A stretch of 64,000 bases of DNA from an uncultured Clostridia bacterium (lineage in GTDB: Bacteria > Bacillota > Clostridia > Oscillospirales > Ruminococcaceae): the NCBI GenBank assembly GCA_947589185.1, contig CANQCK010000005.1:1-64000 (forward strand). The letters are read 5' to 3'. A model generated the notes under the pieces. That model searched no databases. It was not told the DNA's origin and was given only the letters and a program-made list of their open reading frames with translations. Shown piece after piece: positions 1-42,400 of the stretch; position 1 is the stretch's first letter; every line of letters begins with the position of its first letter. A program made the translations under genes and the position numbers.

Positions 1-78
1 ATAATCAAAAGACCTACATACACGACAAATAATAATCTCTAAACAAAATTGATTAGTAGTTGTCGAGTGGGAATAACC

Positions 79-1191
79 ATGAATGGCTGGTTTACAATAG
101 ATAAAATAGACGCAAAGACTTATGTTATCAGTGAATACCATCACCCGGAAGAAACACATTGCTATTTGCTTTGTGGCACAAAGCGAGCCGTTTTAATCGA
201 CACCGGATTAGGCGTTGCAAATATCAAAAAGGTGGTCGAAAAATTGACCGATCTGCCTGTTACCGTTATTACGACCCACGCACATTGGGATCATATCAGA
301 GGACATAAATATTTTCCGGATTTTTATGTCCATAGTGCAGAAATGGATTGGTTAAATGGCAAGTTTCCTTTGCCGTTAGAAATTGCCAAATCGGGATTGA
401 CCGCTGTAGTAGATGTTTTAGAGGAGACGTTAGATATGGATGCTTTAAATGATTTGCTTAAAAGTCTTGTCACACAAAGTCAAAAAATATTAGGAGATAA
501 TCTGATTGGGATTTATCTTCATGGCTCTGCTGTTATGGGATGCTATAATGAGAAAAAAAGTGATATTGATTTGTTAGTTGTAGTAAAGGAAGCTATTCCA
601 AACAACATAAAACATCGCTTCATGGATATGGTTGTAGAATTAAATACATATGCTCCTCCAAAAGGAATCGAACTAAGCATTGTTAAAAGAGGGGTATGCA
701 ATCCGTTTGTTTATCCGACACCTTTCGAATTGCACTTTTCTATTGCACATTTAGAATGGTATAAAACCAATCCTTTAGATTATATTGATAAAATGAAGGG
801 AACAGATAAAGATCTGGCAGCTCATATTACTATTATTTATCACAGGGGAAAATGTCTTTATGGAAACGATATCAAAGATGTCTTTGGAGCAGTCAGTAAA
901 GAAGACTACTTTGATAGTATTTGGAGTGATATTGAGGAAGCTGAAACGGAAATAATGGATAATCCCACTTACATTATTCTAAACTTATGTAGGGTATTAG
1001 CATACAAAAAAGAAGAACTTATCTTGTCAAAACAGGAAGGTGGTAAATGGGGAATATGCAATGTTCCTGAAAAGTATCAAACTTTAATAGTACAGGCACT
1101 GGATGAATATTTATTTAATAAATCAACAGAATATGATGAAAATAATGCCCATGAATATGCTGCATATATGATAACACAGATAAGGAATTAG
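79..1191 (+). CDS. Chimeric protein: N-terminal part of a metallo-beta-lactamase fold hydrolase fused in frame to an ANT(9)/AadA-like aminoglycoside nucleotidyltransferase
   Basis: ORF 49..1191; ATG at 79 more plausible than TTG at 49. THAHWDH metal motif in the N-terminal part; GSAVMGCYNEKKSDIDLLV nucleotidyltransferase motif from about nt 520. Internal ATG at 436 preceded by GAGGAG (421-426). Confidence 0.8.
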   Translation: MNGWFTIDKIDAKTYVISEYHHPEETHCYLLCGTKRAVLIDTGLGVANIKKVVEKLTDLPVTVITTHAHWDHIRGHKYFPDFYVHSAEMDWLNGKFPLPLEIAKSGLTAVVDVLEETLDMDALNDLLKSLVTQSQKILGDNLIGIYLHGSAVMGCYNEKKSDIDLLVVVKEAIPNNIKHRFMDMVVELNTYAPPKGIELSIVKRGVCNPFVYPTPFELHFSIAHLEWYKTNPLDYIDKMKGTDKDLAAHITIIYHRGKCLYGNDIKDVFGAVSKEDYFDSIWSDIEEAETEIMDNPTYIILNLCRVLAYKKEELILSKQEGGKWGICNVPEKYQTLIVQALDEYLFNKSTEYDENNAHEYAAYMITQIRN

Positions 1192-1767: not shown

Positions 1768-1890
1768 AAAAAATTCCTCCTATGATTTTATTTTATCATA
1801 GAAGGAATCGTTTTTACAGACTTTTTTTAATACGCTCACTTGACGAGGAATAGTCTATAGTTGCCACTTTTATATTATATTTGGTTTTGA

Positions 1891-3681
1891 TTATCTTTCC
1901 TCACAGTACAGCTGTCCGCAGTTCATATTATCATTTTTATCGGAGCAAAATACGTAAGCCTTTATTCCATTATCCACTAATTTCTGCTTTAGTTCGTCTA
2001 ATTTTGCTTTATCCGTATTTTTCAAATTATTTAGCTTGGTAGCGCTTGTTTCGTTTAATTTTGACACGCGGACAGTTATTTTATCCTTTACAGGCTTCAG
2101 TTTGTCTGTCAGGCGCTCCATATCCTCGGATGAATCGTTTTTTTCACCGATAACAATATAGTTGATACGGAAAAAATGTTTTTCGCTTGTTGATACGAAT
2201 TTCAGAAATTCGTCCAAACCGGGCAACTCCGAAAAGTTATATATGGGAATCAGCTCCTTGACAAGGCCGGGATTATCGCTTACATATGTGTATTGAATAT
2301 AGCGTATCGGTACATATCGGTCCAGAAATATAGTCTGTTCAAGCAAATCTCTGTCCCAGAAATTGGATGAAAATGTTATATGCAGATTACTGTAGTCCTT
2401 TAACATTTTCACAAAGCGAAATACGCTGTATCTGTTAAAACGCAAATCACCCATTCCGGTTATTGAAAGCAACACGTAGGTGTGTTTATGCAACTCCTTT
2501 TTGTCATATATGTAATCGAATAGGGTCTTCATTTGATTTATTTCCAGAGGATAGAACATATTGATATTCGAGGATGCACAATAGGCGCACTTTGAAGGAC
2601 AGCCGAAACTCACAGGCATTTCGATAACCGATTTCTTAAATTCATCCTGAGCGTAATGTTCAAAATACCCCACTTCATACACACCGAACGAATCCTCAAA
2701 AACATATTTAGTTGTTATCTCACGATCCCAGTTGCTGCCCGAATATTTATTTTCCGTAGAAAAAACCTTTTTTAATCGCATATCTGTCATTTCTCCACTT
2801 ACTGTTTGCATTTCCATGTCAATTGGTTCCATTGTTTCGATAAAATCTGCCATATCATCATCTATCAGCTTCGCATATCGCGTTCCGGGCTGCAGTTCTA
2901 TAAGCAAACTGTCCTGCTGCCCACTCGAGTTATGCGTATACGGTGACATAATACACTGTGTATCCGTTCTGATATAAAGATATGTAACAGATATCAAATC
3001 CACGATATATATTTTTAAATTATTCCAATATTCATTATCAACCTTCTCATGCAGCAGCACATAGAAATCAAACAATGTTCTCTCCAATTTGCTCATCACT
3101 TTGGCGTGTTTTCTCTGCTGCCTTAATTCATATTCCCGTTTAACCTTATCAAGCATGATTCGCATTGATTCCGGTGTCAAATTGTCCATCGAAAGGACGA
3201 TATTAACCGTTTTTTTGTCGTTGAGCATACTTGCTATTTTTTTTACGAATATATCTTTGTATTCCGGCTTAAACCATTTGCTCAAGGAATGACCTACCAA
3301 ATCAAGTCTATTTCCGGAGTTGTTTATGATTTCCTTCCAAAATTTTTGTTCACTATCAAAATATGATTTCGGACGTATGCTTATGACTCCCTGCTTGTAT
3401 AATTTATTGCTTTCCTGCAAGCTGGCTTCTATGTCTTTAAGTCCCGCCGACAGCTCGTCGTGGTCATCGTTTGTATATGCGCGCTGCAGTATTGCAAAAA
3501 TACCGGAGGCAATAACCGAGCATGAAATCCCGAGTATGACATCCTTCCATAAAGCCGCTCTATCCGAATAATTCGTTCTTGAATCAACTATAAATACGCA
3601 TATGATCAGCAAAACCGATACAATCGCGAACACAAGCCAAATATTGGGACCTCTGCCCCATACTTTATTTTTCTTTTTCAT
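1891..3681 (-). CDS. Membrane-anchored radical SAM protein with an uncharacterised N-terminal cytosolic domain
   Basis: ORF; two N-terminal hydrophobic helices; CPSKCAYC (CxxxCxxC) cluster motif; GMGDLRFN motif downstream; overlaps the upstream HD gene by 17 bp. Confidence 0.75.
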   Translation of the reverse strand: MKKKNKVWGRGPNIWLVFAIVSVLLIICVFIVDSRTNYSDRAALWKDVILGISCSVIASGIFAILQRAYTNDDHDELSAGLKDIEASLQESNKLYKQGVISIRPKSYFDSEQKFWKEIINNSGNRLDLVGHSLSKWFKPEYKDIFVKKIASMLNDKKTVNIVLSMDNLTPESMRIMLDKVKREYELRQQRKHAKVMSKLERTLFDFYVLLHEKVDNEYWNNLKIYIVDLISVTYLYIRTDTQCIMSPYTHNSSGQQDSLLIELQPGTRYAKLIDDDMADFIETMEPIDMEMQTVSGEMTDMRLKKVFSTENKYSGSNWDREITTKYVFEDSFGVYEVGYFEHYAQDEFKKSVIEMPVSFGCPSKCAYCASSNINMFYPLEINQMKTLFDYIYDKKELHKHTYVLLSITGMGDLRFNRYSVFRFVKMLKDYSNLHITFSSNFWDRDLLEQTIFLDRYVPIRYIQYTYVSDNPGLVKELIPIYNFSELPGLDEFLKFVSTSEKHFFRINYIVIGEKNDSSEDMERLTDKLKPVKDKITVRVSKLNETSATKLNNLKNTDKAKLDELKQKLVDNGIKAYVFCSDKNDNMNCGQLYCEER

Positions 3682-6091
3682 TTACTTGATCCCCCTCGGA
3701 TGAAATGCTACCGTAAACATCCCGGTATTTTTGCAGCATTTTTCTTTTGCTTTCATTTTCATTTTCTGCTCTTTTTTCTTTAGTTTTGTCCGGAGAAAAA
3801 TTCGCCTGAAAGTATACTTCTCCGCGTTGAATAAATTGAGTAGCCACAAAAACAAAGATTTTTTCTATAAGTTTATAATGCCGCCTTAGCTTTTTTAAAC
3901 TCAATTTATCGTCCGGATTGTGCTCCGCATCGGATGAGCCTGGAATCTTGTCCGGAGTAAGCTGACGCAAAAAAATATAGAAACTTTTTTCCGCATATAT
4001 CGAATAGTAGTCCCTCGAAGGAATAATGGTTGTTAACGACTTAATGTAATACTCGTCCGCACTATATTTTACGTCCGCATCATTGCCTGACATTTCATTC
4101 GTTTTCTGCGCCACATCAAGCTCACGGACAGTCTCCGGCTTGCAGAAGCGCGCCGCACGCTGTATCACAAAAAAGTCTCCGTCGTTAAGAGGCTGAATAA
4201 GATCGGTTTCTTTGCCGTATATCTGCTGAGTAATATATCTCACATGCTTTGCAATCTGAGAGCGAAATTCGTCACCCGCAAACTTTTCGGTGTCTCCTTG
4301 TCCTATCCACTGACAAAGCTTCTCGCGGATGTTATCGTCCGGGAAGTTAATTTCAATAAAGCTGTTAAACTCCGAATATGTCTTCCACCAAGGCTTAAGA
4401 TATTTTCTTTTAATACAGTCACCTATTAGACTATATACATGATTTACATTTTTCACGACTTTTTCAAACTCCGAAATTTCATCGTGAGAACCGTCACCGC
4501 TCAAATCATGTACAGCGGACTGTATATCCTCCTCTGTTATGTTTCCTTCACTCAGAGAATTAATTATCTTATAGATTGCCTCTAGCAAAGGATTTCTAAA
4601 GGCGCCGTTTTCATCCTCGGTCGATTTTGCCTCGCTCATCTTGTTGTAAATATCGTTTAGCAAAAAAATCCAATCGCTGTCGGAACGATACCGATCGATA
4701 ATGGCCTCTAGTGAAAATAGGCAGTTTTTCGATATCATTCCCAGTCGGGCGGTTTCTAATTTCTCTATTTCCCGAAATATTTTATTTTCGTCCGCCTTAA
4801 TATTATCAAACTTCTTGCAAAGATTCGTGATTAAATTTTTAAAATCGCACATATTATGATTCAGCCTTCTGAATATGTACGTATTTATGAAATCGGAGTA
4901 CACAACAGCATGATGATTGTATACGTACATATATAAATCGTCTCTCGCCTCGATCATATTTTGCAGTGCGGGTACCGCTCGGTTTGTAAACACTATCGAG
5001 TATTCTCCGTTTAAATGCATATTCCTGAACAAGCGCGAGGTGTCGATTCTGGGTGTTCCTATCTGTGTCATATATGAATCGCGCATAATATAATCAAGCT
5101 TGTCCATATCAAATATGGGCGAATTTATAAGCCGAATCATAACGTTCTTTTTTTGATTTCCTTTTAATATTTCTTCGCCTTTTTCTTCATCGTTTGAAAA
5201 AAGATTTACAGACGTATCATATTCATATCCGAGAATACAGCGAATGATTAATTCTATGTCCGCATATAACTTTTCGTTGGGAACCTGACCGGCACCTCCG
5301 GCATCTCCGGCATCTCCGGCAACTTCGGCAACTTCGGCGCTTCCGGCATCTCCGGCAACTTCGGCAACTTCGGCGCTTCCGGCAACTTCGGCACCTTCGG
5401 CAACTCCGGCAACTTCGGCAACTTCGGCACTTCCGGCAACTTCGGCACTTCCGGCAACTTCGGCACCTCCGGCAACTCTTGTCAATTTATCATAGAATGT
5501 ATCCATAATAATTATACAAGACAGCTTTTCATGAACCTCGCCGGGAATGTTTTTGCCCTCCTCTATAATTTTTTTAAAAGCATTTTCCAAATTTTTTAAA
5601 CCTTGTACTTTTTGGGCTGAAGTCTCGTCTGAAATTTTGTCTGATATTGTAGCAAGCAGTTTATTATCTACTTCTTTTGCATCGTATTGCGTCTCGCCGA
5701 GATGAGAAAACGGGCAATGCCCGACGTCATGCAGCAACGCCGCTTCTGACGCGCTGAATTCCATCCACGGCTCGAATATTTCCCCGTCGTCCCGGTTCGA
5801 TGAAGTCGTCAGCAGACCGGAGTCGTCATTAAGAAGTCGCTCATTATGCTTAAGACTTCTTATTGCGCGCTTCGTCAATTCCATTACGCCTAAGGAATGT
5901 TCAAATCGGGTATGACGCGCTCCGGGATATACCGCCTGACATGTCAGTTGACGAATGTCTTTCAGACGCTGAAACTCTCTTGTGTCAATGATGTCAAGCT
6001 CAAATTTTGTCAGAGATATATATCCGTGAACATGATCTCGTATGGATTTGGCTATTTCCGTGTAGTATTTTTTGTCATTTAGATTGTACAT
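3665..6091 (-). CDS. HD-domain phosphohydrolase of the SAMHD1/YdhJ/dGTPase-like type with an internal low-complexity Ala/Gly/Glu/Val repeat
   Basis: ORF; HTRFEHSLGVMEL, ALLHDVGHCPFSHLGE and FDMDKLDYIMRDSYMTQIG motifs. Confidence 0.85.
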   Translation of the reverse strand: MYNLNDKKYYTEIAKSIRDHVHGYISLTKFELDIIDTREFQRLKDIRQLTCQAVYPGARHTRFEHSLGVMELTKRAIRSLKHNERLLNDDSGLLTTSSNRDDGEIFEPWMEFSASEAALLHDVGHCPFSHLGETQYDAKEVDNKLLATISDKISDETSAQKVQGLKNLENAFKKIIEEGKNIPGEVHEKLSCIIIMDTFYDKLTRVAGGAEVAGSAEVAGSAEVAEVAGVAEGAEVAGSAEVAEVAGDAGSAEVAEVAGDAGDAGGAGQVPNEKLYADIELIIRCILGYEYDTSVNLFSNDEEKGEEILKGNQKKNVMIRLINSPIFDMDKLDYIMRDSYMTQIGTPRIDTSRLFRNMHLNGEYSIVFTNRAVPALQNMIEARDDLYMYVYNHHAVVYSDFINTYIFRRLNHNMCDFKNLITNLCKKFDNIKADENKIFREIEKLETARLGMISKNCLFSLEAIIDRYRSDSDWIFLLNDIYNKMSEAKSTEDENGAFRNPLLEAIYKIINSLSEGNITEEDIQSAVHDLSGDGSHDEISEFEKVVKNVNHVYSLIGDCIKRKYLKPWWKTYSEFNSFIEINFPDDNIREKLCQWIGQGDTEKFAGDEFRSQIAKHVRYITQQIYGKETDLIQPLNDGDFFVIQRAARFCKPETVRELDVAQKTNEMSGNDADVKYSADEYYIKSLTTIIPSRDYYSIYAEKSFYIFLRQLTPDKIPGSSDAEHNPDDKLSLKKLRRHYKLIEKIFVFVATQFIQRGEVYFQANFSPDKTKEKRAENENESKRKMLQKYRDVYGSISSEGDQVNEKEK
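5290..5478 (-). repeat. In-frame 9-nt tandem repeat array (about 21 units) inside the HD phosphohydrolase gene
   Basis: Plus strand shows successive GGCAACTTC / GGCACTTCC / GGCATCTCC units; encodes AEVAGSAEVAEVAGDAG. Confidence 0.9.
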
Positions 6092-6633
6092 ATAAACACA
6101 TCCTCTTTTCTTGCAGATTTCTCATATTTATTTTTTGAGACATTATAGCCACCATAATTATATTCGAACATATTTTAACATAATAATACTATTTTTTCAA
6201 TACATAAATTCATTTAAGCAAATTTATTTGATTTTTCATTTTTATTCCCCCAACCAAAGCCAACGTCGGCAAATAACAATAATTGATATACTTGGGCATC
6301 TTTTTGAACATATCAGCTATGCTTTGCTTACGTTTTGACAGCAAAATAACAAGGCAGTCGGCTGTGATATAAAATATAAATTTATTTGCTCCACAAATTC
6401 GTTTGGGTTATTCAATTATCTTTATTACCATTATCAGCTTATTACTTTGATTGAAAAATTCTATAGCCCAGCGATAATTGAAATTTTTGAAAAATTTTAA
6501 AATATCTTTTTTCAAATTATGGATTTGTGTGTTAAATAGTTATACATGATGCGATAATAGCTCCAGCAATTTTAAACTGTCTGAAATAAGTCTACAATGA
6601 ATATTCAAATCGGCTAAAAAACTACTCAACCGC

Positions 6634-6662
6634 TTGACATTTTAGCAAATAAACAGTATAAT
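6634..6662 (+). promoter_or_regulatory. Perfect-consensus sigma-A-type promoter (TTGACA-N17-TATAAT)
   Basis: TTGACA 6634-6639, TATAAT 6657-6662, 17-bp spacer. Confidence 0.75.
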
Positions 6663-6703
6663 ATTACAATAACAAGGGGCAACTTCCACAGCTAAAACGT
6701 GCC

Positions 6704-6720
6704 GTTATCACCATGATAAC
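6704..6720. promoter_or_regulatory. Palindrome GTTATCA-CCA-TGATAAC, possible operator
   Basis: Perfect 7-bp inverted repeat about 40 bp downstream of the 6634-6662 promoter; half-site TGATAAC repeated at 6725-6731. Confidence 0.5.
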
Positions 6721-6754
6721 AAAATGATAACACAGCTAAGATAGGCTGTATAAT

Positions 6755-6910
6755 ATGGATATATCAAATAATCAAAAGAACCACAAACACGACAGAATGA
6801 TTGGAATAGATTTGAAGTTTTCGCCACTTGCCTTTTTAATGAAGAAAGAGCAATATTATGGTTGGATAGATAAATTTACAAATGAGTTGATAAATTCTTT
6901 GAAAATATAA
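6755..6910 (+). CDS. Small 51-aa ORF, possibly a remnant of a transposon-associated gene
   Basis: MDISNNQKNHKHDRMIGIDLKFSPLAFLMKKEQYYGWIDKFTNELINSLKI, downstream of a consensus promoter; its 5' end resembles the sequence at window positions 1-27. No clear ribosome binding site. Confidence 0.4.
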   Translation: MDISNNQKNHKHDRMIGIDLKFSPLAFLMKKEQYYGWIDKFTNELINSLKI

Positions 6911-7223: not shown

Positions 7224-7916
7224 ATGAGATACGAATGGATTGACGAGTATTTACTTGGCAAAGCGGGAGTGAGCAAAGACCTTCAGAAAGATTGGAATTG
7301 GATCCGCTATCAAATCGGCGGAAAGATGTTTGCGGCAGTCTGTCTGGGAGAGAATGACGAGCCGTATTATATAACGCTGAAACTGGAACCGATGGAAGGA
7401 GATTTCCTGCGGCAGCAATATGAGGATATTATTCCCGGCTATTATATGAATAAGATGCATTGGAATTCCGTTAAACCGGATGGAAATGTTCCGGATGACC
7501 TGTTAAAAGATCTGTTGGATAAATCATATCAACTTGTGCTTGACAGCTTCAGCAAGAAGAAACAGCGGGAGATTCTAAATGGTGAGCATTCAGCAGGAAT
7601 AGTAAGCTGCTGTGGAACAGATTGCACGGGATGCGGTTGCTTTGGAACTATGTGTAAGGGGTGTAACGCCTGTCTCGGAAAAGTATTTCATGCACCCGAA
7701 GGGCAGGCATGCCCGATATATGAATGCTCAATAAATCAAAAGGAACTAGGCAGCTGCGGCGGCTGTGAGTGCCTTCCGTGTGATATATGGAAAAACACTA
7801 AGGATCCTTCCTTTTCGGAGGAAGAATTTGAGCGGAATATACAAGAAAGGGTAGCCAGACTGAAGAACTCCAAAACAAGGTTGGAAAATTTTGAAATTTT
7901 GGAGAAAGGAAATTAA
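7224..7916 (+). CDS. MmcQ/YjbR-like N-terminal domain + Cys-rich DUF3795-like protein
   Basis: ORF; start at 7224 (MRYEWIDEYLL) with AAAGGAGAG upstream; MmcQ-like N-terminus; CCGTDCTGCGCFGTMCKGCNACLGK cysteine cluster. Confidence 0.7.
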   Translation: MRYEWIDEYLLGKAGVSKDLQKDWNWIRYQIGGKMFAAVCLGENDEPYYITLKLEPMEGDFLRQQYEDIIPGYYMNKMHWNSVKPDGNVPDDLLKDLLDKSYQLVLDSFSKKKQREILNGEHSAGIVSCCGTDCTGCGCFGTMCKGCNACLGKVFHAPEGQACPIYECSINQKELGSCGGCECLPCDIWKNTKDPSFSEEEFERNIQERVARLKNSKTRLENFEILEKGN

Positions 7917-7937
7917 AAATTATGTCAGCGGTGAGAG

Positions 7938-7969
7938 GTTGCACAATAATGTGCAACTTTTTCTTTTTA
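7938..7969 (+). terminator. Rho-independent terminator
   Basis: GTTGCACA-ATAA-TGTGCAAC followed by a T-rich tract. Confidence 0.8.
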
Positions 7970-7998
7970 TGGTGTAATATTGAAAGGAGGATAGATAT

Positions 7999-8667
7999 AT
8001 GTCAATCAACTATAAAAAATCGCTGGGCAAACGGTTAGCTGACTTTAACAGCAGGTTTTATAAACCGCCGATAAATACCGCCTCAAGAGGTCAGTGCGTT
8101 TGGTATACGCAAGGCAGAGCCTATGAAAAGAAAGGCGTTTATATCGGTGCAAGAGGCAACGCCAAAGACGTTTATCAAAGCTGTAAAAATTCAGGGTTTC
8201 AGGTATCTTGGTATCCTAAGCCTAATTCAATTGCCTGCTTTAACGGAGGCACTTACGGTCATGTAAGATATGTTGAACACGTTATAGCTGACACAGTGTA
8301 TTTCACCGAGGCAAATTGGAACGCTGATAATGCAATCTCAGCTGATGACGGCGTTCTGAAAAAGATGTCGTTGTCTGACTGGATGGCACAGCCGTTTTTA
8401 CAGGGTCACGTTGCGGTTAAGAAAGAAAAGCTGATAACCTTTGAGGTCGTGACGCCAAAAGGTAAGATCGGATTGTATAAATCAAGCAATATTATCAGAA
8501 AAAACAAGGTCAAAAATATAAAGGCAGATAGTATCAAAGCTGTTTCCGGAAGCGGCAGGATTAAAGACGGAAGAGACATTGTAAAGGTTTTGTATAACAA
8601 CAGATATTACTGGTCGATAAGGGTAAACAAATCAGGAGTAAGACAGTTGAAAAGAAAAGATAAATAA
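7999..8667 (+). CDS. CHAP-domain peptidoglycan amidohydrolase without an obvious signal peptide
   Basis: RGQCVWYTQGRA (Cys) and GHVRYVEHV (His) CHAP motifs; GGAGG ribosome binding site. Confidence 0.8.
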   Translation: MSINYKKSLGKRLADFNSRFYKPPINTASRGQCVWYTQGRAYEKKGVYIGARGNAKDVYQSCKNSGFQVSWYPKPNSIACFNGGTYGHVRYVEHVIADTVYFTEANWNADNAISADDGVLKKMSLSDWMAQPFLQGHVAVKKEKLITFEVVTPKGKIGLYKSSNIIRKNKVKNIKADSIKAVSGSGRIKDGRDIVKVLYNNRYYWSIRVNKSGVRQLKRKDK

Positions 8668-33125: not shown

Positions 33126-33301
33126 CAATCTAATTCACACAAATGTAAAAATAAGTTTTTAAAATTTTTACTTGTTTAATTAGTCAATACTGTATACTTA
33201 ATTTAGTTATAATTCTAGGCGTTATTCCACGTTTAGTATTATATATACATTTTATAATGAATCAAATTAATAAAAGAAAAGAGGTAAACAACATTGAAGA
33301 T
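33126..33301 (+). repeat. 176-bp leader segment identical to 39267-39442 (5' UTR, RBS, first codons)
   Basis: Direct comparison by eye; includes GAGGTAAACAACATTG. Confidence 0.9.
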
Positions 33302-36300
33302 CAAAAGAATAGCTTTGAATTTAATAAGCTGTTTTGCGCTGTTGGTTAGTTCAATACCTTCTACGGCGGTTTTTGTTTCTGCTGAGGAAGTTACTACAGT
33401 GCCCGGCGTTCCAAAGTATGTAACAATTAGTGGAACTGACGGAAAGGGTGCTGGGAAGACAAAAAGCGCTGTATTTGCAAATGGTACAGATATTGAGGTT
33501 ACTTATGATGCAGGTACCGATACTAATACCGTAACGTATGCAGGCGGATCTATTCCAGGAGTGGCAAAGGATGCAGATGTGTTCGCCGGATGCCACGGCA
33601 GTGCCACACCGGTTGGTACTGAGGAAGATCCTGTGGAAATCGTAATCAATGGAGCAAAATTAAACACTGTTTACGGCGGAGGACTTCATGAGTCAACTGT
33701 TGATAATGTAAAAATAACAGTTAAAGGCAATGCAGAACTAAAGTGGGTTTGCGGAGGAGGAGCTAACTGCTTAATCAAGGACAGCGTTTGCTCAGAAGGT
33801 GCTGATTATTGGCAATCTGGTAATTCAGAATCCTCTAAGACTGTAGTTAAAAATGCGGAGATTAATATTGAAGATGGTACGTTCGCAAATTGTGTTTATG
33901 GCGGCGGTGAAGGTTTCAGCAAAACTGAAAATACAGCCATAAATATTAAGGACGGTACAATTCTTGCTGTATCTTCCAGCGGTTCTAACGGTTATACCGG
34001 TAATTCTAATGTAAACATTGAGGGCGGTAATATTACAGAAGTTAGGTCTGTAACTAGAGGTACTATTGCAAGCTCAGATGTTGCAGTTTCAGGCGGTACC
34101 ATAACTAATCTTTACATAGGCGGAAGCAAGGGTGATACTGTCAATGGTACTGTTAAAAAATCAACTGTAAATGTTACCGGCGGTGAAGTAGCAAAACTGT
34201 ATCCAGGTACTTCAGACGGAAGAGATATTACAGTATCTGAAAGTGAACAGTATTCATTTGGACTTTCAGGAGACGGTAAAATTACTGAGTATGATACAGG
34301 CATCACTGAAGAGGATAACAGTGCTTCGGTTAATGAGATGACATACTTAGAAAGTAAAGACTTCCAGGACGCTCCTAATATTGCTCCAATCCTGTTTACT
34401 AATGGTAAGTCTGTTACTGTTACTTATGATGAAGTAAGCGGTCAGAATATTGTAACTTGTGAAGACGGAAGCATTAAGAAAATTCCTACCAATGCAAATA
34501 TTTTTGCAGGCAGCCATAATAGTGATAGTGAAATCTCAGATAAGGTTACAATAACAATCGACGGTGCAAAGCTGAACTCAGTTTGGGGCGGTGGAATGCA
34601 CAAGTCTCATGTTAAAAATGCAGAAATCGTTGTAAAGAGCGGTTCAAAAATAGGATTTATACAAGGCGGCGGCGCAGCTATAAACTCTGCTATTAAGCAG
34701 TGTGTCGAGGGTTGCGACGGAGCTATCAAGGATTCAGACGCTAAAAACTCTACATGTGTAGTTGATGAAGTAGCTATTACTATTGAAGATGGTGCTACCG
34801 TAACTGATATATACGGCGGCGGCGAAGGCTATAGTAAAACTGTTAAGACAACAGTTAACATTAAGGGCGGAGACATTGAATTTTTAGGAGCAGGCGGTTC
34901 TAACGGTTATACCGGTACAGCTAATGTAAAAATTGAAGGCGGAAATATCGGTCTTGTTCAGTCTGTAAACAGAGGAACAATGGATTCTGCTGAAATTGAT
35001 GTTAGCGGCGGTACTATTGACGAACTCTTCATCGGCGGAGAAGATGCTGATGACGTTAAAGGAACAATCACTTCTTCTACTGTAAAGGTAACAGGCGGTA
35101 CAGTTGAAAGTTTGGCTCCTGGTAAATCAGGCGGTAATGTAATTGACGACGAGTCTGGTGGTACGTTTAAAGTTGAGATATCAAGTGAAGCTGATGTTGA
35201 TTTAGATGCAGAAAGCAACTTTAAGGGTATTGAGCTTTCATGCACACATAAATTGCCATTGATTAAGGTTTCAACTAAGACAGATGCAACCTGCACAGCT
35301 AATGGAGCAATAGACGTATGGCAGTGTTCAAACTGTAATCAGTACTTTACTGATAAAGATGCTAAAACACCACTTGAAGATCAAAATGAAGATAGCATTG
35401 TTAATGAAGAAGATTTCAAGACTGATATGATAGCTCACAACTATGTTGAGCATACTTTAAAGAAGTGCGATGGAACTACAAGTGATTTCAAATATTATAC
35501 TTGTTCTGTATGCGGAAAATTCTTTGAGGAAAAGAACGGTCCTGAGGTTGAAATAGAAACACTTAAAACTAAAATTGAAGCCGCAACTGAACACAAGACA
35601 AGTGTATTAAAAGGTGTAAAAGCTACATGTTCAGAGGTTGGTTACACAGACGGTTTACAATGTACTGTATGCGGTGAAACAATTGTGAAAAAACAATTAA
35701 TTAACCGTGATAGTTCAAACCATATGAAAGGCGATGCAAGCACATGGCCTGAAACTTGGAGTGATTTAACTCAGGCTGATATGGATGCAACCGGCTATTT
35801 CAATGTTGAAGATTGTACAAAAGGCGGATGGAAAGTTCGTGAATGTACACAATGTGGAGCTAAACAGTATAAATATATTGACAAAACAACACATACATGG
35901 GGCGAACCAGTTGTTGAAGCTGCTGATGATAAGGAAGCAACCTGTACCGAGCCTGGAAAGAAAACAAAAACCTGTTCGGTATGCCATATGAAGGAGCAGG
36001 TAGAAATTCCTGCAAAAGCACATAAGAAGTCTACTGGCGAAACTGCAATTGAGATAGTTCCTGCTAAAGACGCTACATGTACAGACAGCGGAAATGACCG
36101 TTACTGGAAGTGCTCGGAATGTAATGCTTGCTTTAGTGATAAAGACGGAGAAACCGTAATTGACGAAACAACAACACATAAAGATGCGTTAGGTCATGAA
36201 TATGAAGAAGTTAAAGAAATCCCTCCGACATGTACAGATTCAGGTGTTTCGGCATATAAACAGTGCAAGAGATGCGGAGTATATGAGGAAGGACACGAAA

Positions 36301-38867
36301 GGACAATACTTCCTGTAAATTCTAACGGACACGTTTATACGGAATTACTTGGTGAAGCTAAGGAAGCTACATGTACTGAAACAGGTTTATATGCATATTT
36401 CCAATGTACAGCTTGCAAGAAGTATTACAAGATAACAGCTACAAGCGACGAAGGAGATACGTATGAAGAGATTACATTGCAGGGCGGCAGTGCTAATCCA
36501 GAAGATTTGACAATTCCAGTAGTAGATCACAAATATAGTGAGAGCCCAACTGCATATAAAGCTCCTGACTGCACAAACAAGGGAAATTATGGTTCAGTTG
36601 AATGTACAGTATGCAATCACAAGTTTAAGACAACTGATGCAGAGGGCAATCCACTTGCTGAAAATGAATACATTGATGTTGAAAGTGATGAATCTCAGCT
36701 AGAAATCGCTGCATTAGGTCATGATTGGGTGAAGCAAAAAGAGACATGCACAAGAGACGCATATTATGATTGCAGTCGTTGTGATAAAAACGCAAAGATT
36801 TTACAGGATAGCTCTGGTTCTGACGAGACAATTGAAGATGGCGGAACAGTTTATCTGAAATATATTGAGTCTCTTGATGATTTAAACAAGCCGGAAGCTT
36901 CTCATCACTGGGTAGATAAGGTAGCTACTGCAAAAGATGCAACTTGCACTGAAGATGGTAGTTACGCATATGCACAGTGTGATAAGTGCGAAGTATTCGC
37001 AGAGAAATTACCTGATGGAGCTTATAAAGAGTGGACCGTTGCTGATGATAAAAACAACGATGGCGTAATCACTGCGGATGACTTTGTTAAAAAGGCAACA
37101 GGACATAACTTTGAAGATGGTTTTGTTAAAGGTTATGCATCTCCTGATCCATGTACACAACCTGGTCTCAAATCATATGCAGTATGTAAGAATGACGGCT
37201 GTGGAGTTTATGCTTTAGCAACTCTAAAAGCTGAGGCTAGTGATGGTTCGGAGAATCCGGCAGATTACGATTATACACCATGGACTGTTCAGGATAATGA
37301 TAAGAACAGCGACGGCAAAATTGATGCAGATGATTTTGTTATTGACGTAGTAGGTCATATTTATGGTGAACTACATCCGGCATATATTCCTGAGGGAGCT
37401 GCTGCTTGTACAGAAAACGGCAAGAAAGCATATTATAAGTGTTCAGTATGTAATAAGCTGTTTATAGATGAAGGCAGCGATAAGAAGGAAGTAACTGAAA
37501 ACGAGTTAATAGTTCCTGCACCGGGACATAAAGATGAAGCTATACCTGCATCTGAAGATGTAGCAGCTACATGTACCGACCAGGGTCTTACGGGCGGAAC
37601 TAGATGTTCAGTCTGCAAGACAATACTCACACCGAGAACGGTAATTCCTGCACTTGGACACGACTTTAAGGAAGAAAGTTATAAGACAAAAACTCCTGCA
37701 ACTTGCGAGACCAAAGAAATTCAGGAGGCTAAATGTTCACGCTGCGACGTAACGCAGACAAGAGAGAAGCCTAACTCAGAACCACTTGGTCACGATTATC
37801 AAAAGGTTGAAGCTAAGGAAGCAACCTGCGCAGAACCTGGTAACATTGAGCATTACAAGTGTTCAAGATGTTCTAAGCTGTTTATTGATGAAGAAGGCGC
37901 TAAGAAAGAGGTAACTGCTGACAAGGTAGTAACTACAAAAGATCACGAATATGGTGAGCTTATTGCTGAAGTAGCTGCAACTTGTACAAAGGAAGGTACT
38001 AAGGCACACTATAAGTGTTCTGTATGTGAGAAGCTGTTTGTAGATGAAACTACAATGCAAGACGACGCTCCTGTAACGATTAAGAAAGAAGTTACAGCAG
38101 AAGACTTAGTAATCGAAAAGATTGCTCATACACCAAAAGCAGTTGATGCTGTAGTTGCTACTTGTACAAAGCCAGGTTTGACAGAAGGTTCAGTTTGTGA
38201 TGTATGCGGTGAAGTACTTGTTGCTCAGACAGTAACACCTATGATTGACCATACACCTGTAACTGATGCTAAAGTTGATCCGACTTGCACAAAAACAGGT
38301 TTAACAGAGGGTAAACATTGCTCAGTATGCGAGGGAACTCTTGTTGCACAAGCAGTAATACCTGCACTTGGTCATAATTTTGTAAACGGCGTCTGCACAA
38401 GATGTAACGAAAATGCGCCAAGCTATAGCGATGATACACCAGTTAACAATGGTAATTCTAATCCAAGCGTAAACCAACCTAACAACAATACTATAAATAA
38501 TAATAATAATAATGTAACTAAACCTGCAAATAAGATTCCTGCAAGTGCATTAAAGGTAAAGCAGGCTAAGGTTAAAAATCTGAAGGTTAAGAGCAAGGCT
38601 AAGAAGACTATTAAAGTTAAATGGAAGAAGGTTAGCGGTGCTAAGGGCTACAAGATTGAAGTTTCTAAGAACAACAAGTTTAAGAAAAAAGCTATAGTAA
38701 TCAAGAAAACTACTAAGAAGCTGAAACTTAAAATCAAGAACAAGAAGCTCAAGAGCAAGAAGACCTACTATGTACGTGTAAGAGCATACACAACATACAA
38801 GGCTAACGGTGCTACAAAGAAGGTTTATAGCAGTTTGAAGGCTATAAAGAAAGTTAAGGTTAAATAA
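33294..38867 (+). CDS. Giant secreted repeat protein A (1857 aa), TTG start
   Basis: Signal peptide; two Gly-rich beta-solenoid-like blocks (NVNIEGG..VSGGTI); >15 CT..G....CSVC repeats; Asn-rich linker; Lys-rich FN3-like C-terminus. Confidence 0.85.
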   Translation: MKIKRIALNLISCFALLVSSIPSTAVFVSAEEVTTVPGVPKYVTISGTDGKGAGKTKSAVFANGTDIEVTYDAGTDTNTVTYAGGSIPGVAKDADVFAGCHGSATPVGTEEDPVEIVINGAKLNTVYGGGLHESTVDNVKITVKGNAELKWVCGGGANCLIKDSVCSEGADYWQSGNSESSKTVVKNAEINIEDGTFANCVYGGGEGFSKTENTAINIKDGTILAVSSSGSNGYTGNSNVNIEGGNITEVRSVTRGTIASSDVAVSGGTITNLYIGGSKGDTVNGTVKKSTVNVTGGEVAKLYPGTSDGRDITVSESEQYSFGLSGDGKITEYDTGITEEDNSASVNEMTYLESKDFQDAPNIAPILFTNGKSVTVTYDEVSGQNIVTCEDGSIKKIPTNANIFAGSHNSDSEISDKVTITIDGAKLNSVWGGGMHKSHVKNAEIVVKSGSKIGFIQGGGAAINSAIKQCVEGCDGAIKDSDAKNSTCVVDEVAITIEDGATVTDIYGGGEGYSKTVKTTVNIKGGDIEFLGAGGSNGYTGTANVKIEGGNIGLVQSVNRGTMDSAEIDVSGGTIDELFIGGEDADDVKGTITSSTVKVTGGTVESLAPGKSGGNVIDDESGGTFKVEISSEADVDLDAESNFKGIELSCTHKLPLIKVSTKTDATCTANGAIDVWQCSNCNQYFTDKDAKTPLEDQNEDSIVNEEDFKTDMIAHNYVEHTLKKCDGTTSDFKYYTCSVCGKFFEEKNGPEVEIETLKTKIEAATEHKTSVLKGVKATCSEVGYTDGLQCTVCGETIVKKQLINRDSSNHMKGDASTWPETWSDLTQADMDATGYFNVEDCTKGGWKVRECTQCGAKQYKYIDKTTHTWGEPVVEAADDKEATCTEPGKKTKTCSVCHMKEQVEIPAKAHKKSTGETAIEIVPAKDATCTDSGNDRYWKCSECNACFSDKDGETVIDETTTHKDALGHEYEEVKEIPPTCTDSGVSAYKQCKRCGVYEEGHERTILPVNSNGHVYTELLGEAKEATCTETGLYAYFQCTACKKYYKITATSDEGDTYEEITLQGGSANPEDLTIPVVDHKYSESPTAYKAPDCTNKGNYGSVECTVCNHKFKTTDAEGNPLAENEYIDVESDESQLEIAALGHDWVKQKETCTRDAYYDCSRCDKNAKILQDSSGSDETIEDGGTVYLKYIESLDDLNKPEASHHWVDKVATAKDATCTEDGSYAYAQCDKCEVFAEKLPDGAYKEWTVADDKNNDGVITADDFVKKATGHNFEDGFVKGYASPDPCTQPGLKSYAVCKNDGCGVYALATLKAEASDGSENPADYDYTPWTVQDNDKNSDGKIDADDFVIDVVGHIYGELHPAYIPEGAAACTENGKKAYYKCSVCNKLFIDEGSDKKEVTENELIVPAPGHKDEAIPASEDVAATCTDQGLTGGTRCSVCKTILTPRTVIPALGHDFKEESYKTKTPATCETKEIQEAKCSRCDVTQTREKPNSEPLGHDYQKVEAKEATCAEPGNIEHYKCSRCSKLFIDEEGAKKEVTADKVVTTKDHEYGELIAEVAATCTKEGTKAHYKCSVCEKLFVDETTMQDDAPVTIKKEVTAEDLVIEKIAHTPKAVDAVVATCTKPGLTEGSVCDVCGEVLVAQTVTPMIDHTPVTDAKVDPTCTKTGLTEGKHCSVCEGTLVAQAVIPALGHNFVNGVCTRCNENAPSYSDDTPVNNGNSNPSVNQPNNNTINNNNNNVTKPANKIPASALKVKQAKVKNLKVKSKAKKTIKVKWKKVSGAKGYKIEVSKNNKFKKKAIVIKKTTKKLKLKIKNKKLKSKKTYYVRVRAYTTYKANGATKKVYSSLKAIKKVKVK

Positions 38868-39266: not shown

Positions 39267-39442
39267 CAATCTAATTCACACAAATGTAAAAATAAGTTTT
39301 TAAAATTTTTACTTGTTTAATTAGTCAATACTGTATACTTAATTTAGTTATAATTCTAGGCGTTATTCCACGTTTAGTATTATATATACATTTTATAATG
39401 AATCAAATTAATAAAAGAAAAGAGGTAAACAACATTGAAGAT
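39267..39442 (+). repeat. Second copy of the 176-bp identical leader segment
   Basis: Identical to 33126-33301. Confidence 0.9.
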
Positions 39443-42400
39443 TAAAAGAATGGCTATAAGCTTATTAAGTTGTTTAGCGCTTATTGCTAGTTCAATACCT
39501 TCTACGGCGGTTTTTGTTTCTGCTGAAGCGAATACCCTTACTACACCGGGTGTTCCAAAGCAAGTAACAATTAAGGGTTCCCCTAGTGACATAACTGCTG
39601 TATTTGCAAATGGTACAGATATTGAGGTTACTTATGACGATGAAAGTGATTCAAATATTGTATCTTGGACTGACGCAGAAGGTGCTAAGAATACGATACA
39701 GTCTGTTCCTACAAATGCAGAAGTGTTCGCCGGATGCCACGGCAGTTCTGAAGCAGTTGGTAGTGATGCTGATCCTGTAGAAATCGTAATCAATGGAGCG
39801 CACTTAAACACTGTTTACGGCGGAGGACTTCATGAGTCAACTGTTAATAATGTAAAAATAACAGTTAAAGGTGATTCAGACCTTAAATGGGTTTGCGGAG
39901 GCGGAGCAAATTGTCTTGTTCATTGCGATCAAGGTGCATGTGCTGAAAAAGGTTGGAAGGACAATGGAGCTGATTCCGCAACTTTAGTTAAAAAGGCAGA
40001 GGTTAATATCGAAGCTGGTACAGTTGCAAATGACGTTTATGGCGGCGGTGAAGGCTACAGCAAAACTGACAGCACAACCGTAAATATTAAGGGCGGTACA
40101 CTTAGTTCTGTATGTGCCGGCGGTTCTAACGGTGCTACCGGTAATTCTGAGGTTAACATTGAAAACGGTACTATTAAATGGGTTTACTCTGTAAACAGAG
40201 GTACTATGGGCAGCTCAGCAGTTACAGTTACAGGCGGTGAAATAGAAAACCTTTATGTAGGTTCAGCAGGCTCAAACTATCCGAGTATTACAGGTACTGT
40301 TAATGCGGCAAGTGTTGATATTAAAGGCGGTACTGTTAAAGAGTTACATGCCGGTAATTCTTCAAACGGGAAGCCTTTGGATGTATCACAGCCGAATTAC
40401 TCATTCTCAGCTAATCCAAGTTCTGTTGAAAAGTACAACGAAGACATTGAAGAGAATAAGGACAAGGAAAATGCTTATTACTACTTTAATGCTTATCTAA
40501 ATAATGATGAGAAGGATAATCTAGGAAACAGCGCTGCAAGCAAAGTTACTCCTATCATACAAATAATGCAAGGTAGCAACGGAAAAACATATCAGGCTGT
40601 ATTTGCTATGGCAAACGGAACTAAAGTTGTAGCTACTGATGTTAAAAATGCAGACGGAACATGGAAAGAAACTAAATTAGCATGTGGAGATGACGGTAGC
40701 TATATTCTTACAAACTATGACATTGTTAATCTGTTTGGCGGAAGTCATAATAGCGATACATTAGTTCCATCAACTGACGTTACATTAGACGGAACTACCC
40801 ACGTACAAAGCGTATGGGGCGGCGGCTGGCATAAATCTAAGACCGGCACAACTAAGGTAACAGTAAAGGGCAACGCAGAGGTTAAGGGTATCCAAGGCGG
40901 AGCTGCTAACTTCTTTGCAGGTACAAACTGCGGAACTGAGGGTTGCACAGGTTACAATGGAAGCAATTCAAGCAAGCCATGTATTGAAAAGCCTGGGGCA
41001 AATACACCAGAAGCATACAATGTTAGTGGTAACGCATGCGTTGATAGTGCAACTGTAGTAGTTGAAAGCTGCAAGCCATATACAACGCCAAGCGGTGTTG
41101 AACAAGATACACTGATTTTTGGTGGCGGTGAATGTTATGCTTACACAGGCACTGTTAACGTAACAGTTAGCGGCGGCGAGTTTACTAAAGATTCAATTGT
41201 ATATCCTGCCGGCTCAAACGGTTACACAGGCGAATCTTCTCTTGTAGTTGACGGAGAGGTTACAATTCCAAATGTTGCTTCTGCAAAGAGCGGAATCGTT
41301 AAGAGTGCTGATATTGAAATAAAGAACGGTACAGTAGAAAATCTTACTGTCGGCATGATTGAAAGTAAAGAAGGCTATGGTGAAATAGAAGCTAGCGATG
41401 TAAAAGTATCATCAGGCGGTACAGTTAACGATGTTACGTTTGGTCATAAGAATGATAGTGAAACAATTAAACCTGAAAATGATGAAGGTTATACTTTAAC
41501 GGCTGACGGCGGAAAGATTGAACAAGTCGACGGCGAAGAAGTTGATTATTCAAAAGTTGAGTGTACCCACAACGCATACCTGCCTCATTTAATGGAAGTA
41601 GAGGAAATACCTGCTACATGTGTACCAGGAAAGTATGCTTATTGGAAGTGTGCTAACTGTCTGCACTATTATGCTACAATTAAAGGCGCATTAACTGACG
41701 TTACTGCTAAAGATGAAGATGGAAATTTCCTCGACAAAGTTGACGAAGATAAAATTAAGATTGAAGCAACTGCTTCTCACAAATATGTTGAGCATCAAAT
41801 ACTCGCTTGTGACGGTGATTCAGTTGCAGCAACCTACTATACATGTGAAACTTGCACAAACTACTTTGAAAAAGAAGAAGGTCCCGGTGAAACTTATAAG
41901 CAAATTACCTTTGAGGAAGTTCAGTCAAAAATGACTACAGCCGGACATACGACAGAAAAAGTACCTGGCAAAGCTGCTACATGTAGTGAAGTAGGTTACA
42001 CTGACGGATTAAGATGTCAAAAATGCGGTATAACAATTGTTGAAAGACAGAAGATTAACCGTGACAACACAAACCACGTAGACGCTGAGGGCAACTCAAC
42101 TTGGGGCGATGCTGTTCGTGTTCCTGATGATGATGATCACGCTAATATTTATCCGGGCTTGACAGATTGTGCAAAGGGCGGATGGAAAGTTCGTGAATGT
42201 ACACAATGTAATGCTAAACAATATGTGTATGTAGACCCGACAGATCATAAATGGGGCACGCCGGTTGTTGAAGCTGAAGGAGATAAAGAAGCTACTTGTA
42301 CCGAAGCTGGACAGAAAACAAAGACTTGTTCGGAATGCGGTAAGAAGGAGCAGGTAACTATTGACGCATTAGGCCATGATTTGACAGGCGAGGGCAACCC

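What the first reader, a model, noticed from the sequence alone, without database searches (positions are those of the whole stretch)
1891..6091. Two-gene operon: SAMHD1/YdhJ-like HD phosphohydrolase + membrane-anchored radical SAM protein, candidate undescribed (defense?) system
Seen: the two genes overlap by 17 bp (3665-3681). The first has HD motifs and the SAMHD1-like FDMDKLDYIMRD motif; the second has two TM helices, an unrecognised ~300-aa domain and a CxxxCxxC radical SAM core. Established: SAMHD1/dGTPase-type HD enzymes deplete dNTPs and some bacterial dGTPases are antiviral; radical SAM enzymes such as viperins also act in defense. This radical SAM is not obviously a viperin. Inference: position in an accessory segment next to a resistance gene and an IS remnant suggests a horizontally acquired defense or nucleotide-modifying module.
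Basis: partly seen in the sequence, partly recalled or inferred. Interest (0 to 1): 0.75.

Follow-up and report, generated by a model that had tools for sequence, protein, structure and literature searches.

The report
Membrane radical-SAM enzyme paired with SAMHD1-like hydrolase
A mobile two-gene unit in gut Clostridia pairs a SAMHD1-like nucleotide hydrolase with a membrane-anchored relative of the RNA-methylating enzyme RlmN that has kept one of RlmN's two key cysteines and lost the other; it looks like an undescribed, possibly anti-phage, module, but its function is untested.

Summary
HD gene (3665-6091, -) and radical SAM gene (1891-3681, -) overlap by 17 bp, both open, under purifying selection. 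The defence reading is plausible, not proven. New facts: (1) The rSAM core is RlmN/Cfr-like by sequence and predicted fold. It keeps CxxxCxxC and the C-terminal CGQL cysteine that RlmN methylates, but the resolving cysteine (C118 in E. coli) is Glu in all four family members found, versus Cys in every one of 27 true RlmNs examined; RlmN's RNA-binding N-terminal domain is absent. (2) The N-terminus is two TM helices plus a predicted phospholipase-D-like fold without the HKD motif (TrmB/FAM83-like), so a probable sensor. (3) The pair recurs 86-90% identical in an unrelated rabbit-gut Clostridia genome, inside a mobilizable island between DpnII and AlwI restriction systems and a ThsB-like TIR gene, and at ~50% identity in a third genome, where the HD gene is broken. 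A fourth genome has sensor and rSAM as two adjacent genes without HD. (4) It is rare and absent from the plasmid, phage and viral collections searched. Best guess: membrane-sensing accessory (probably defence) module using S-methyl-cysteine radical chemistry plus (d)NTP hydrolysis. Substrate and phenotype unknown.

The parts
3665..6091 (-). HD gene: SAMHD1-like HD phosphohydrolase, 808 aa, first gene of the pair
   Evidence: ORF; PDB matches 2o6i, 2q14, SAMHD1; Pfam HD
5888..5905 (-). FEHSLG motif (H65, metal-ligand position by homology to SAMHD1)
5726..5731 (-). HD dyad (H121-D122)
5078..5113 (-). FDMDKLDYIMRD motif (distal Asp metal ligand)
5289..5478 (-). 21-copy, 9-bp in-frame tandem repeat (Ala/Glu/Val/Gly-rich insert), absent from the L005 orthologue
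1891..3681 (-). Sensor-rSAM gene, 596 aa, second gene, overlapping HD by 17 bp
   Evidence: ORF; profile and structure
3568..3657 (-). TM helix 1 (residues 9-38)
3481..3546 (-). TM helix 2 (residues 46-67)
2827..3393 (-). PLD-superfamily-like domain without HKD motif (residues 97-285), probable ligand sensor
   Evidence: model pLDDT 76, Foldseek to TrmBL2, FAM83, PS synthase, Zucchini, NucT; weaker in the full-length model
1894..2784 (-). RlmN/Cfr-like beta-extension and radical SAM core (residues 300-596)
   Evidence: TIGR00048 E=5e-8 below cutoff; profile to Cfr/RlmN; Foldseek RlmN 2.5e-14
2620..2622 (-). Glu354 at the position of RlmN C118 (resolving cysteine)
2578..2601 (-). CxxxCxxC [4Fe-4S] motif CPSKCAYC (C361, C365, C368)
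1909..1920 (-). CGQL: C588, equivalent of RlmN C355 (S-methylated cysteine)
1838..6779 (.). DNA block shared with L005 (87-91% identity): the transferred unit, genes plus about 690 bp upstream of HD

Best explanation
A horizontally mobile two-gene accessory module, most likely anti-phage/anti-MGE. Inferred working: a membrane-anchored PLD-like (pseudo-enzyme) domain senses a ligand or membrane change and gates an RlmN-like radical SAM core. The core would be S-methylated on C588, make a thiomethylene radical with a second SAM, and add it to an sp2 carbon of an adenine-type (nucleotide or RNA) substrate; Glu354 replaces the cysteine that in RlmN takes the proton and helps release the product. 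The co-encoded SAMHD1-like HD protein would hydrolyse (d)NTPs or the modified nucleotide, attacking nucleotide pools in parallel. Shown: gene anatomy, motifs, gene-pair conservation, mobility, purifying selection, defence-island context in one locus. Predicted by model: folds. Inferred: enzymatic activities, substrate, sensing and defence. My sub-estimates: mobile accessory module ~0.9; HD is a (d)NTP phosphohydrolase ~0.75; rSAM uses mCys588 chemistry ~0.6; defence role ~0.5.
For: Pair in 3 of 4 family loci; in a 394-genome order sample the only close HD relatives (E<1e-70) are in the two genomes that have the rSAM. Unit transferred between lineages as a 5-kb block. No rSAM match in 14 same-genus genomes. 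In G041 the pair (C2:66676-70765) lies between Mob/integrase genes, with DpnII MTase/REase/MTase and a ThsB-like TIR protein on one side and two D12 MTases + AlwI REase on the other. In L044 it lies between IS3-type transposases, next to a Fic protein. Core is RlmN/Cfr-like, with CxxxCxxC and CGQL invariant. Split sensor/rSAM genes in L037 show they are two functional units. HD catalytic motifs intact. dN/dS ~0.33 for both genes.
Against: No phenotype. L037 lies among housekeeping-looking genes and has no HD; in L044 HD carries an in-frame stop (TAA, 3730-3732) and a frameshift while the rSAM is intact, though MAG assembly error cannot be excluded. Window flanks show no defence genes. Core is less basic than RlmN (net charge -9 to +1 versus a median of about +5) and lacks the HhH2 RNA-binding domain, so a large-RNA substrate is uncertain. 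Only four family members were found.
Confidence: 0.42

Rival explanations
1. Nucleotide-antimetabolite pathway, working like OxsA/OxsB (oxetanocin) or viperin: the rSAM modifies a free adenine (d)NTP and the HD enzyme removes phosphates from the product or from competing natural nucleotides.
For: HD + rSAM operon logic is precedented by OxsA/OxsB (own knowledge; papers naming both listed); the core has lost RlmN's RNA-binding N-domain and basic charge, which suits a small substrate.
Against: No cobalamin-binding domain and an RlmN-like, not OxsB-like, core; HD is SAMHD1-like and far larger than OxsA (own knowledge); two rSAM loci have no intact HD; membrane anchoring is unexplained.
Confidence: 0.2
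2. Covalent RNA trap: because the resolving cysteine is Glu, the rSAM stays thioether-linked to an adenosine of tRNA or other RNA, tethering it at the membrane and stopping translation when the sensor fires. HD is a second effector.
For: C118A RlmN and C105A Cfr give stable protein-RNA crosslinks (PMC13001441; PMC5130265); the new family has kept the methylated Cys and lost the resolving one in 4/4 members.
Against: HhH2 RNA-binding domain missing and core not basic; Glu might act as the base that C118 provides, and product release by another route is possible; several other RlmN residues differ (M to T408, E to D412, H to V467).
Confidence: 0.13
3. Housekeeping-type or regulatory membrane enzyme (e.g. 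modification of a protein or lipid) that happens to travel on mobile elements, with HD a neighbouring dNTPase.
For: L037 context is not defence-like; the predicted core also resembles PFL-activase-type rSAMs that act on proteins.
Against: Sporadic distribution: close members in about 1 of 390 genomes in the order and class samples and none besides the window in 399 of the phylum; mobile-island contexts; horizontal block transfer.
Confidence: 0.2
4. Decaying remnant without function in this genome.
For: IS256 remnant and chimeric ORF next door; an expanding 9-bp repeat inserted in HD; HD broken in L044.
Against: Both window ORFs intact with all catalytic motifs, dN/dS ~0.33 versus L005.
Confidence: 0.05

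Closest known systems
RlmN / Cfr radical SAM RNA adenosine methyltransferases
   Same: beta-extension + radical SAM fold, CxxxCxxC, C-terminal CGQL methylatable Cys
   Different: Resolving Cys (C118/C105) is Glu; HhH2 RNA-binding N-domain absent; TM + PLD-like sensor added (fused, or as a separate gene in L037); far below family cutoffs; the genome has its own true RlmN at 407 bits
SAMHD1 / bacterial SAMHD1-like HD phosphohydrolases (2o6i, 2q14) and anti-phage dGTPases
   Same: HD fold segment with all metal-ligand motifs and the DxDKxDYxxRD motif
   Different: About 400-residue C-terminal extension without PDB sequence match; anti-phage dGTPase models only weakly matched
Clover (CloA dNTPase + CloB nucleotidyltransferase)
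   Same: Defence operon with an HD dNTPase and a partner (PMC12265719)
   Different: Partner is a membrane rSAM, not a nucleotidyltransferase
OxsA/OxsB oxetanocin pair
   Same: HD phosphohydrolase + radical SAM enzyme (own knowledge)
   Different: No B12 domain, different HD subfamily, membrane anchor
TrmB/TrmBL2, FAM83 pseudo-PLD domains
   Same: Predicted PLD-like fold lacking the HKD catalytic motif
   Different: Attached to two TM helices and an rSAM enzyme; TM-scores about 0.5, so distant
Prokaryotic viperins (pVip)
   Same: Radical SAM CxxxCxxC
   Different: No PADLOC match at E<=1; core is RlmN-like

Membership tests
RlmN/Cfr | CxxxCxxC radical SAM cluster motif | tested here: met
   4/4 members
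RlmN/Cfr | C-terminal methylatable Cys (C355, CGQL) | tested here: met
   4/4 members
RlmN/Cfr | Resolving Cys C118/C105 | tested here: not met
   Glu in 4/4; Cys in 27/27 RlmNs
RlmN/Cfr | N-terminal HhH2 RNA-binding domain | tested here: not met
   Replaced by TM + PLD-like domain, or absent (L037):
RlmN/Cfr | Score above NCBIfam cutoff | tested here: not met
   32-40 bits vs 290
RlmN/Cfr | Methylates C2/C8 of RNA adenosine | not testable with these tools
   needs enzymology
SAMHD1-like HD phosphohydrolase | HD metal ligands and DxDKxDYxxRD motif | tested here: met
SAMHD1-like HD phosphohydrolase | dNTP triphosphohydrolase activity and allosteric nucleotide sites | not testable with these tools
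   needs assay
Anti-phage dGTPase (PADLOC dGTPase, NF041026) | Model match over most of the protein | tested here: not met
   30.5 bits over residues 34-135 only; 16.6 vs cutoff 400
Viperin (pVip) | Viperin family profile match | tested here: not met
   no PADLOC match at E<=1
Clover | CloB nucleotidyltransferase partner | tested here: not met
   partner is rSAM
OxsA/OxsB | Cobalamin-binding domain on the rSAM | tested here: not met
   no such Pfam match
Phospholipase D superfamily | PLD-like fold | tested here: met
   Foldseek E about 3e-5 on a model of pLDDT 76
Phospholipase D superfamily | HKD catalytic motif | tested here: not met
   no HxKx4D in the domain; TYLYIRTDTQ at the corresponding region by my reading
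Defence system (operational) | Defence-island context and mobility | tested here: inconclusive
   strong in G041, weak or absent in the other three loci
Defence system (operational) | Reduces phage or plasmid success | not testable with these tools
   needs challenge assay

The most novel reading that the evidence does not exclude
A membrane-tethered, sensor-gated RlmN-like enzyme that by design lacks the resolving cysteine and therefore forms a lasting thioether crosslink to an adenosine of RNA (or of a nucleotide), i.e. a natural version of the C118A trap used as a suicide effector in immunity, together with a SAMHD1-like dNTPase.
Probability: 0.12. Interest if true: 0.92.

Novelty: new variant of a known kind. 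Interest (0 to 1): 0.6.

Why it matters
I found no description of this pair in PADLOC, NCBIfam, Pfam or PHROGs, or in the papers searched (open-licence PMC only). A radical SAM enzyme that keeps RlmN's methylated cysteine but replaces the resolving one by Glu makes a clear chemical prediction (crosslink, or a new proton-transfer route) that can be tested directly. If it is immune-related, it would be a radical SAM defence chemistry distinct from viperins, coupled to dNTP hydrolysis and membrane sensing.

Tried and rejected
Rejected: viperin; membership in RlmN/Cfr (resolving Cys and N-domain missing); the window rSAM being the genome's RlmN (a 407-bit RlmN exists elsewhere). Led nowhere: plasmid and phage tblastn with the rSAM and the L037 core, plasmid tblastn with the sensor; five IMG/VR scans (two pattern hits were unrelated rSAMs); sensor-domain profile versus PDB sequences; family searches around G706 and G124; the weak hits G264/G221/G119 are ordinary RlmNs with C118; L038 and L039 were chance hits. 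Distant HD relatives on Klebsiella and Rhizobium plasmids and a Klebsiella phage have no annotated rSAM neighbour in the stretches read; a Fusobacterium relative has none among its ORFs. Literature searches for HD+rSAM or RlmN-like defence systems found nothing. Only one full scan of genome contigs was allowed, with short peptide patterns, so distant members were missed there.
Full report
Observation. A Shine-Dalgarno-like GAGGGGG lies upstream of the rSAM start inside the end of HD. The window is the start of contig C5 of a 1.9-Mb genome, so what lies to the left of position 1 is unknown.

HD protein. Pfam HD is matched (2.6e-5). Sequence search of the PDB gives bacterial SAMHD1-like proteins (2o6i, 2q14) and SAMHD1 itself; in the best of them two stretches match, the second containing the distal FDMDKLDYIMRD motif. 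All motif residues are present. The anti-phage dGTPase models match only about 100 residues around the HD motif. The window copy carries a 21-copy, 9-bp in-frame tandem repeat that its orthologue lacks. A looser relative (517 aa, 35% over the HD part) sits elsewhere in the same genome, about 1 kb from type IV pilus/type II secretion-like genes.

rSAM protein, core. TIGR00048 (RlmN) is matched at 4.8e-8, 32 bits against a cutoff of 290, and the relatives match RlmN and Cfr models similarly. A four-sequence profile finds Cfr (4e-8) and RlmN in the PDB. The AlphaFold2 model has high confidence over residues 300-590 and Foldseek returns RlmN first (6fz6 2.5e-14; E. coli C118A RlmN 8.5e-13). The genome has a separate true RlmN (407 bits).

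The cysteines. In 27 of 27 RlmNs taken from genomes of the same class both the C118-type motif and CGQL are present. In the four new proteins (window, L005, L044, L037) CxxxCxxC and CGQL are invariant, but the C118 column is Glu in all four; further columns change with it (Q to S/G, M to T, E to D in GEP, H to V/I). No other Cys is invariant in the core; a Cys in the sensor domain (C243) is conserved in all four. In RlmN/Cfr the second Cys takes the substrate proton and starts breakdown of the protein-RNA crosslink, and C118A/C105A trap it (PMC13001441; PMC5130265). The HhH2 RNA-binding domain described for Cfr is absent, and the core is less basic than RlmN. So the enzyme probably keeps the S-methyl-cysteine radical start of the reaction but not RlmN's ending, and its substrate may not be a large RNA. 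That is inference.

rSAM protein, N-terminus. Two hydrophobic helices and a linker helix precede an alpha/beta domain. The isolated domain, modelled from four sequences (pLDDT 76, one of five models clearly better than the rest), matches TrmBL2, FAM83, phosphatidylserine synthase, Zucchini and NucT, i.e. the PLD superfamily (E 3e-5 to 1e-3, TM about 0.5). The full-length model gave TrmBL2 and a PLD independently. No HKD motif remains by my reading, so a non-catalytic, TrmB-like ligand-binding role is the natural guess. In L037 the TM/sensor (271 aa) and the rSAM (341 aa) are separate adjacent genes, which argues that they work together.

Distribution. Close pair in rabbit-gut Clostridia MAG CANQKM010000002.1 (L005, rSAM 90%, HD 86% per matched segment). 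DNA identity of 87-91% runs from window 1838 to 6779 and stops: the genes plus about 690 bp upstream moved as a unit. dN/dS is about 0.33 for both. A third pair (L044) has rSAM 45% identical overall (53% in the core) and HD about 50%, but HD there has an in-frame TAA (3730-3732) and a frameshift near 4250-4320; the rSAM is intact. L037 has no HD nearby. Sampling: apart from the window's genome, 1 of 391 class genomes held a close relative, 1 of 394 order genomes, none of 399 phylum genomes; no rSAM match in 14 same-genus genomes. In the order sample, strong HD homologues occur only in the two genomes with the rSAM.

Context. In G041 the pair (C2:66676-70765) lies in an island with MobA/L, Mob_Pre and integrase genes, DpnII MTase/REase/MTase, a DUF1883-TIR protein matching ThsB and PDC-S66 models, a caspase-like peptidase, and an AlwI-type restriction system. 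L044 has IS3-type transposases (by eye), Fic, and a P-loop protein with a NUDIX-like tail by eye. The window has an IS256 remnant and a chimeric MBL/ANT(9) ORF. L037's neighbours are not defence-like.

Verdict. A real, mobile, conserved gene pair; best read as a sensor-gated accessory module with probable defence function (about 0.5). It is not a member of RlmN/Cfr, viperin, Clover or Oxs, by tested features. The defence role and the substrate remain inferences; the natural C118-to-Glu change is the most useful new fact because it gives a sharp biochemical test.

Noticed in passing
window 5289-5478: In-frame 9-bp tandem repeat, 21 copies, adding an Ala/Glu/Val/Gly-rich insert to the HD protein that the L005 orthologue lacks: a recent expansion inside an enzyme gene.
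   Followed up: partly
window 7-75 and 6779; L005 4865-4933: The first bases of the contig match L005 right next to the point where the 1838-6779 homology block ends, so the contig start may be an element junction.
   Followed up: no
window 49-1191: Chimeric ORF: N-terminal metallo-beta-lactamase-fold fragment followed by an ANT(9)-like aminoglycoside adenylyltransferase.
   Followed up: partly
L044:3088-5228: HD orthologue broken by an in-frame TAA (3730-3732) and a frameshift (about 4250-4320) while the downstream rSAM gene is intact; intact copies exist in the window and L005.
   Followed up: partly
L071:8234-9787 (G000:C12): A second, 517-aa SAMHD1-like HD protein in the same genome, about 1 kb from type II secretion/type IV pilus-like genes.
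   Followed up: no
L040:1455-2222 and 7379-8140 (G041): Caspase-domain protein and DUF1883-TIR protein (ThsB/PDC-S66-like) flanking a DpnII restriction system in the same island.
   Followed up: partly
L044:8365-9774: 469-aa P-loop nucleotide-kinase-like protein with a NUDIX-like C-terminus (by eye), next to a TM protein, between IS3-type transposases.
   Followed up: no
window 33294-38867 and 39435-45104: Two adjacent, similar giant (about 1860-1890 aa) probably secreted proteins with many repeated 'C..C'-type motifs and a near-identical C-terminus.
   Followed up: no
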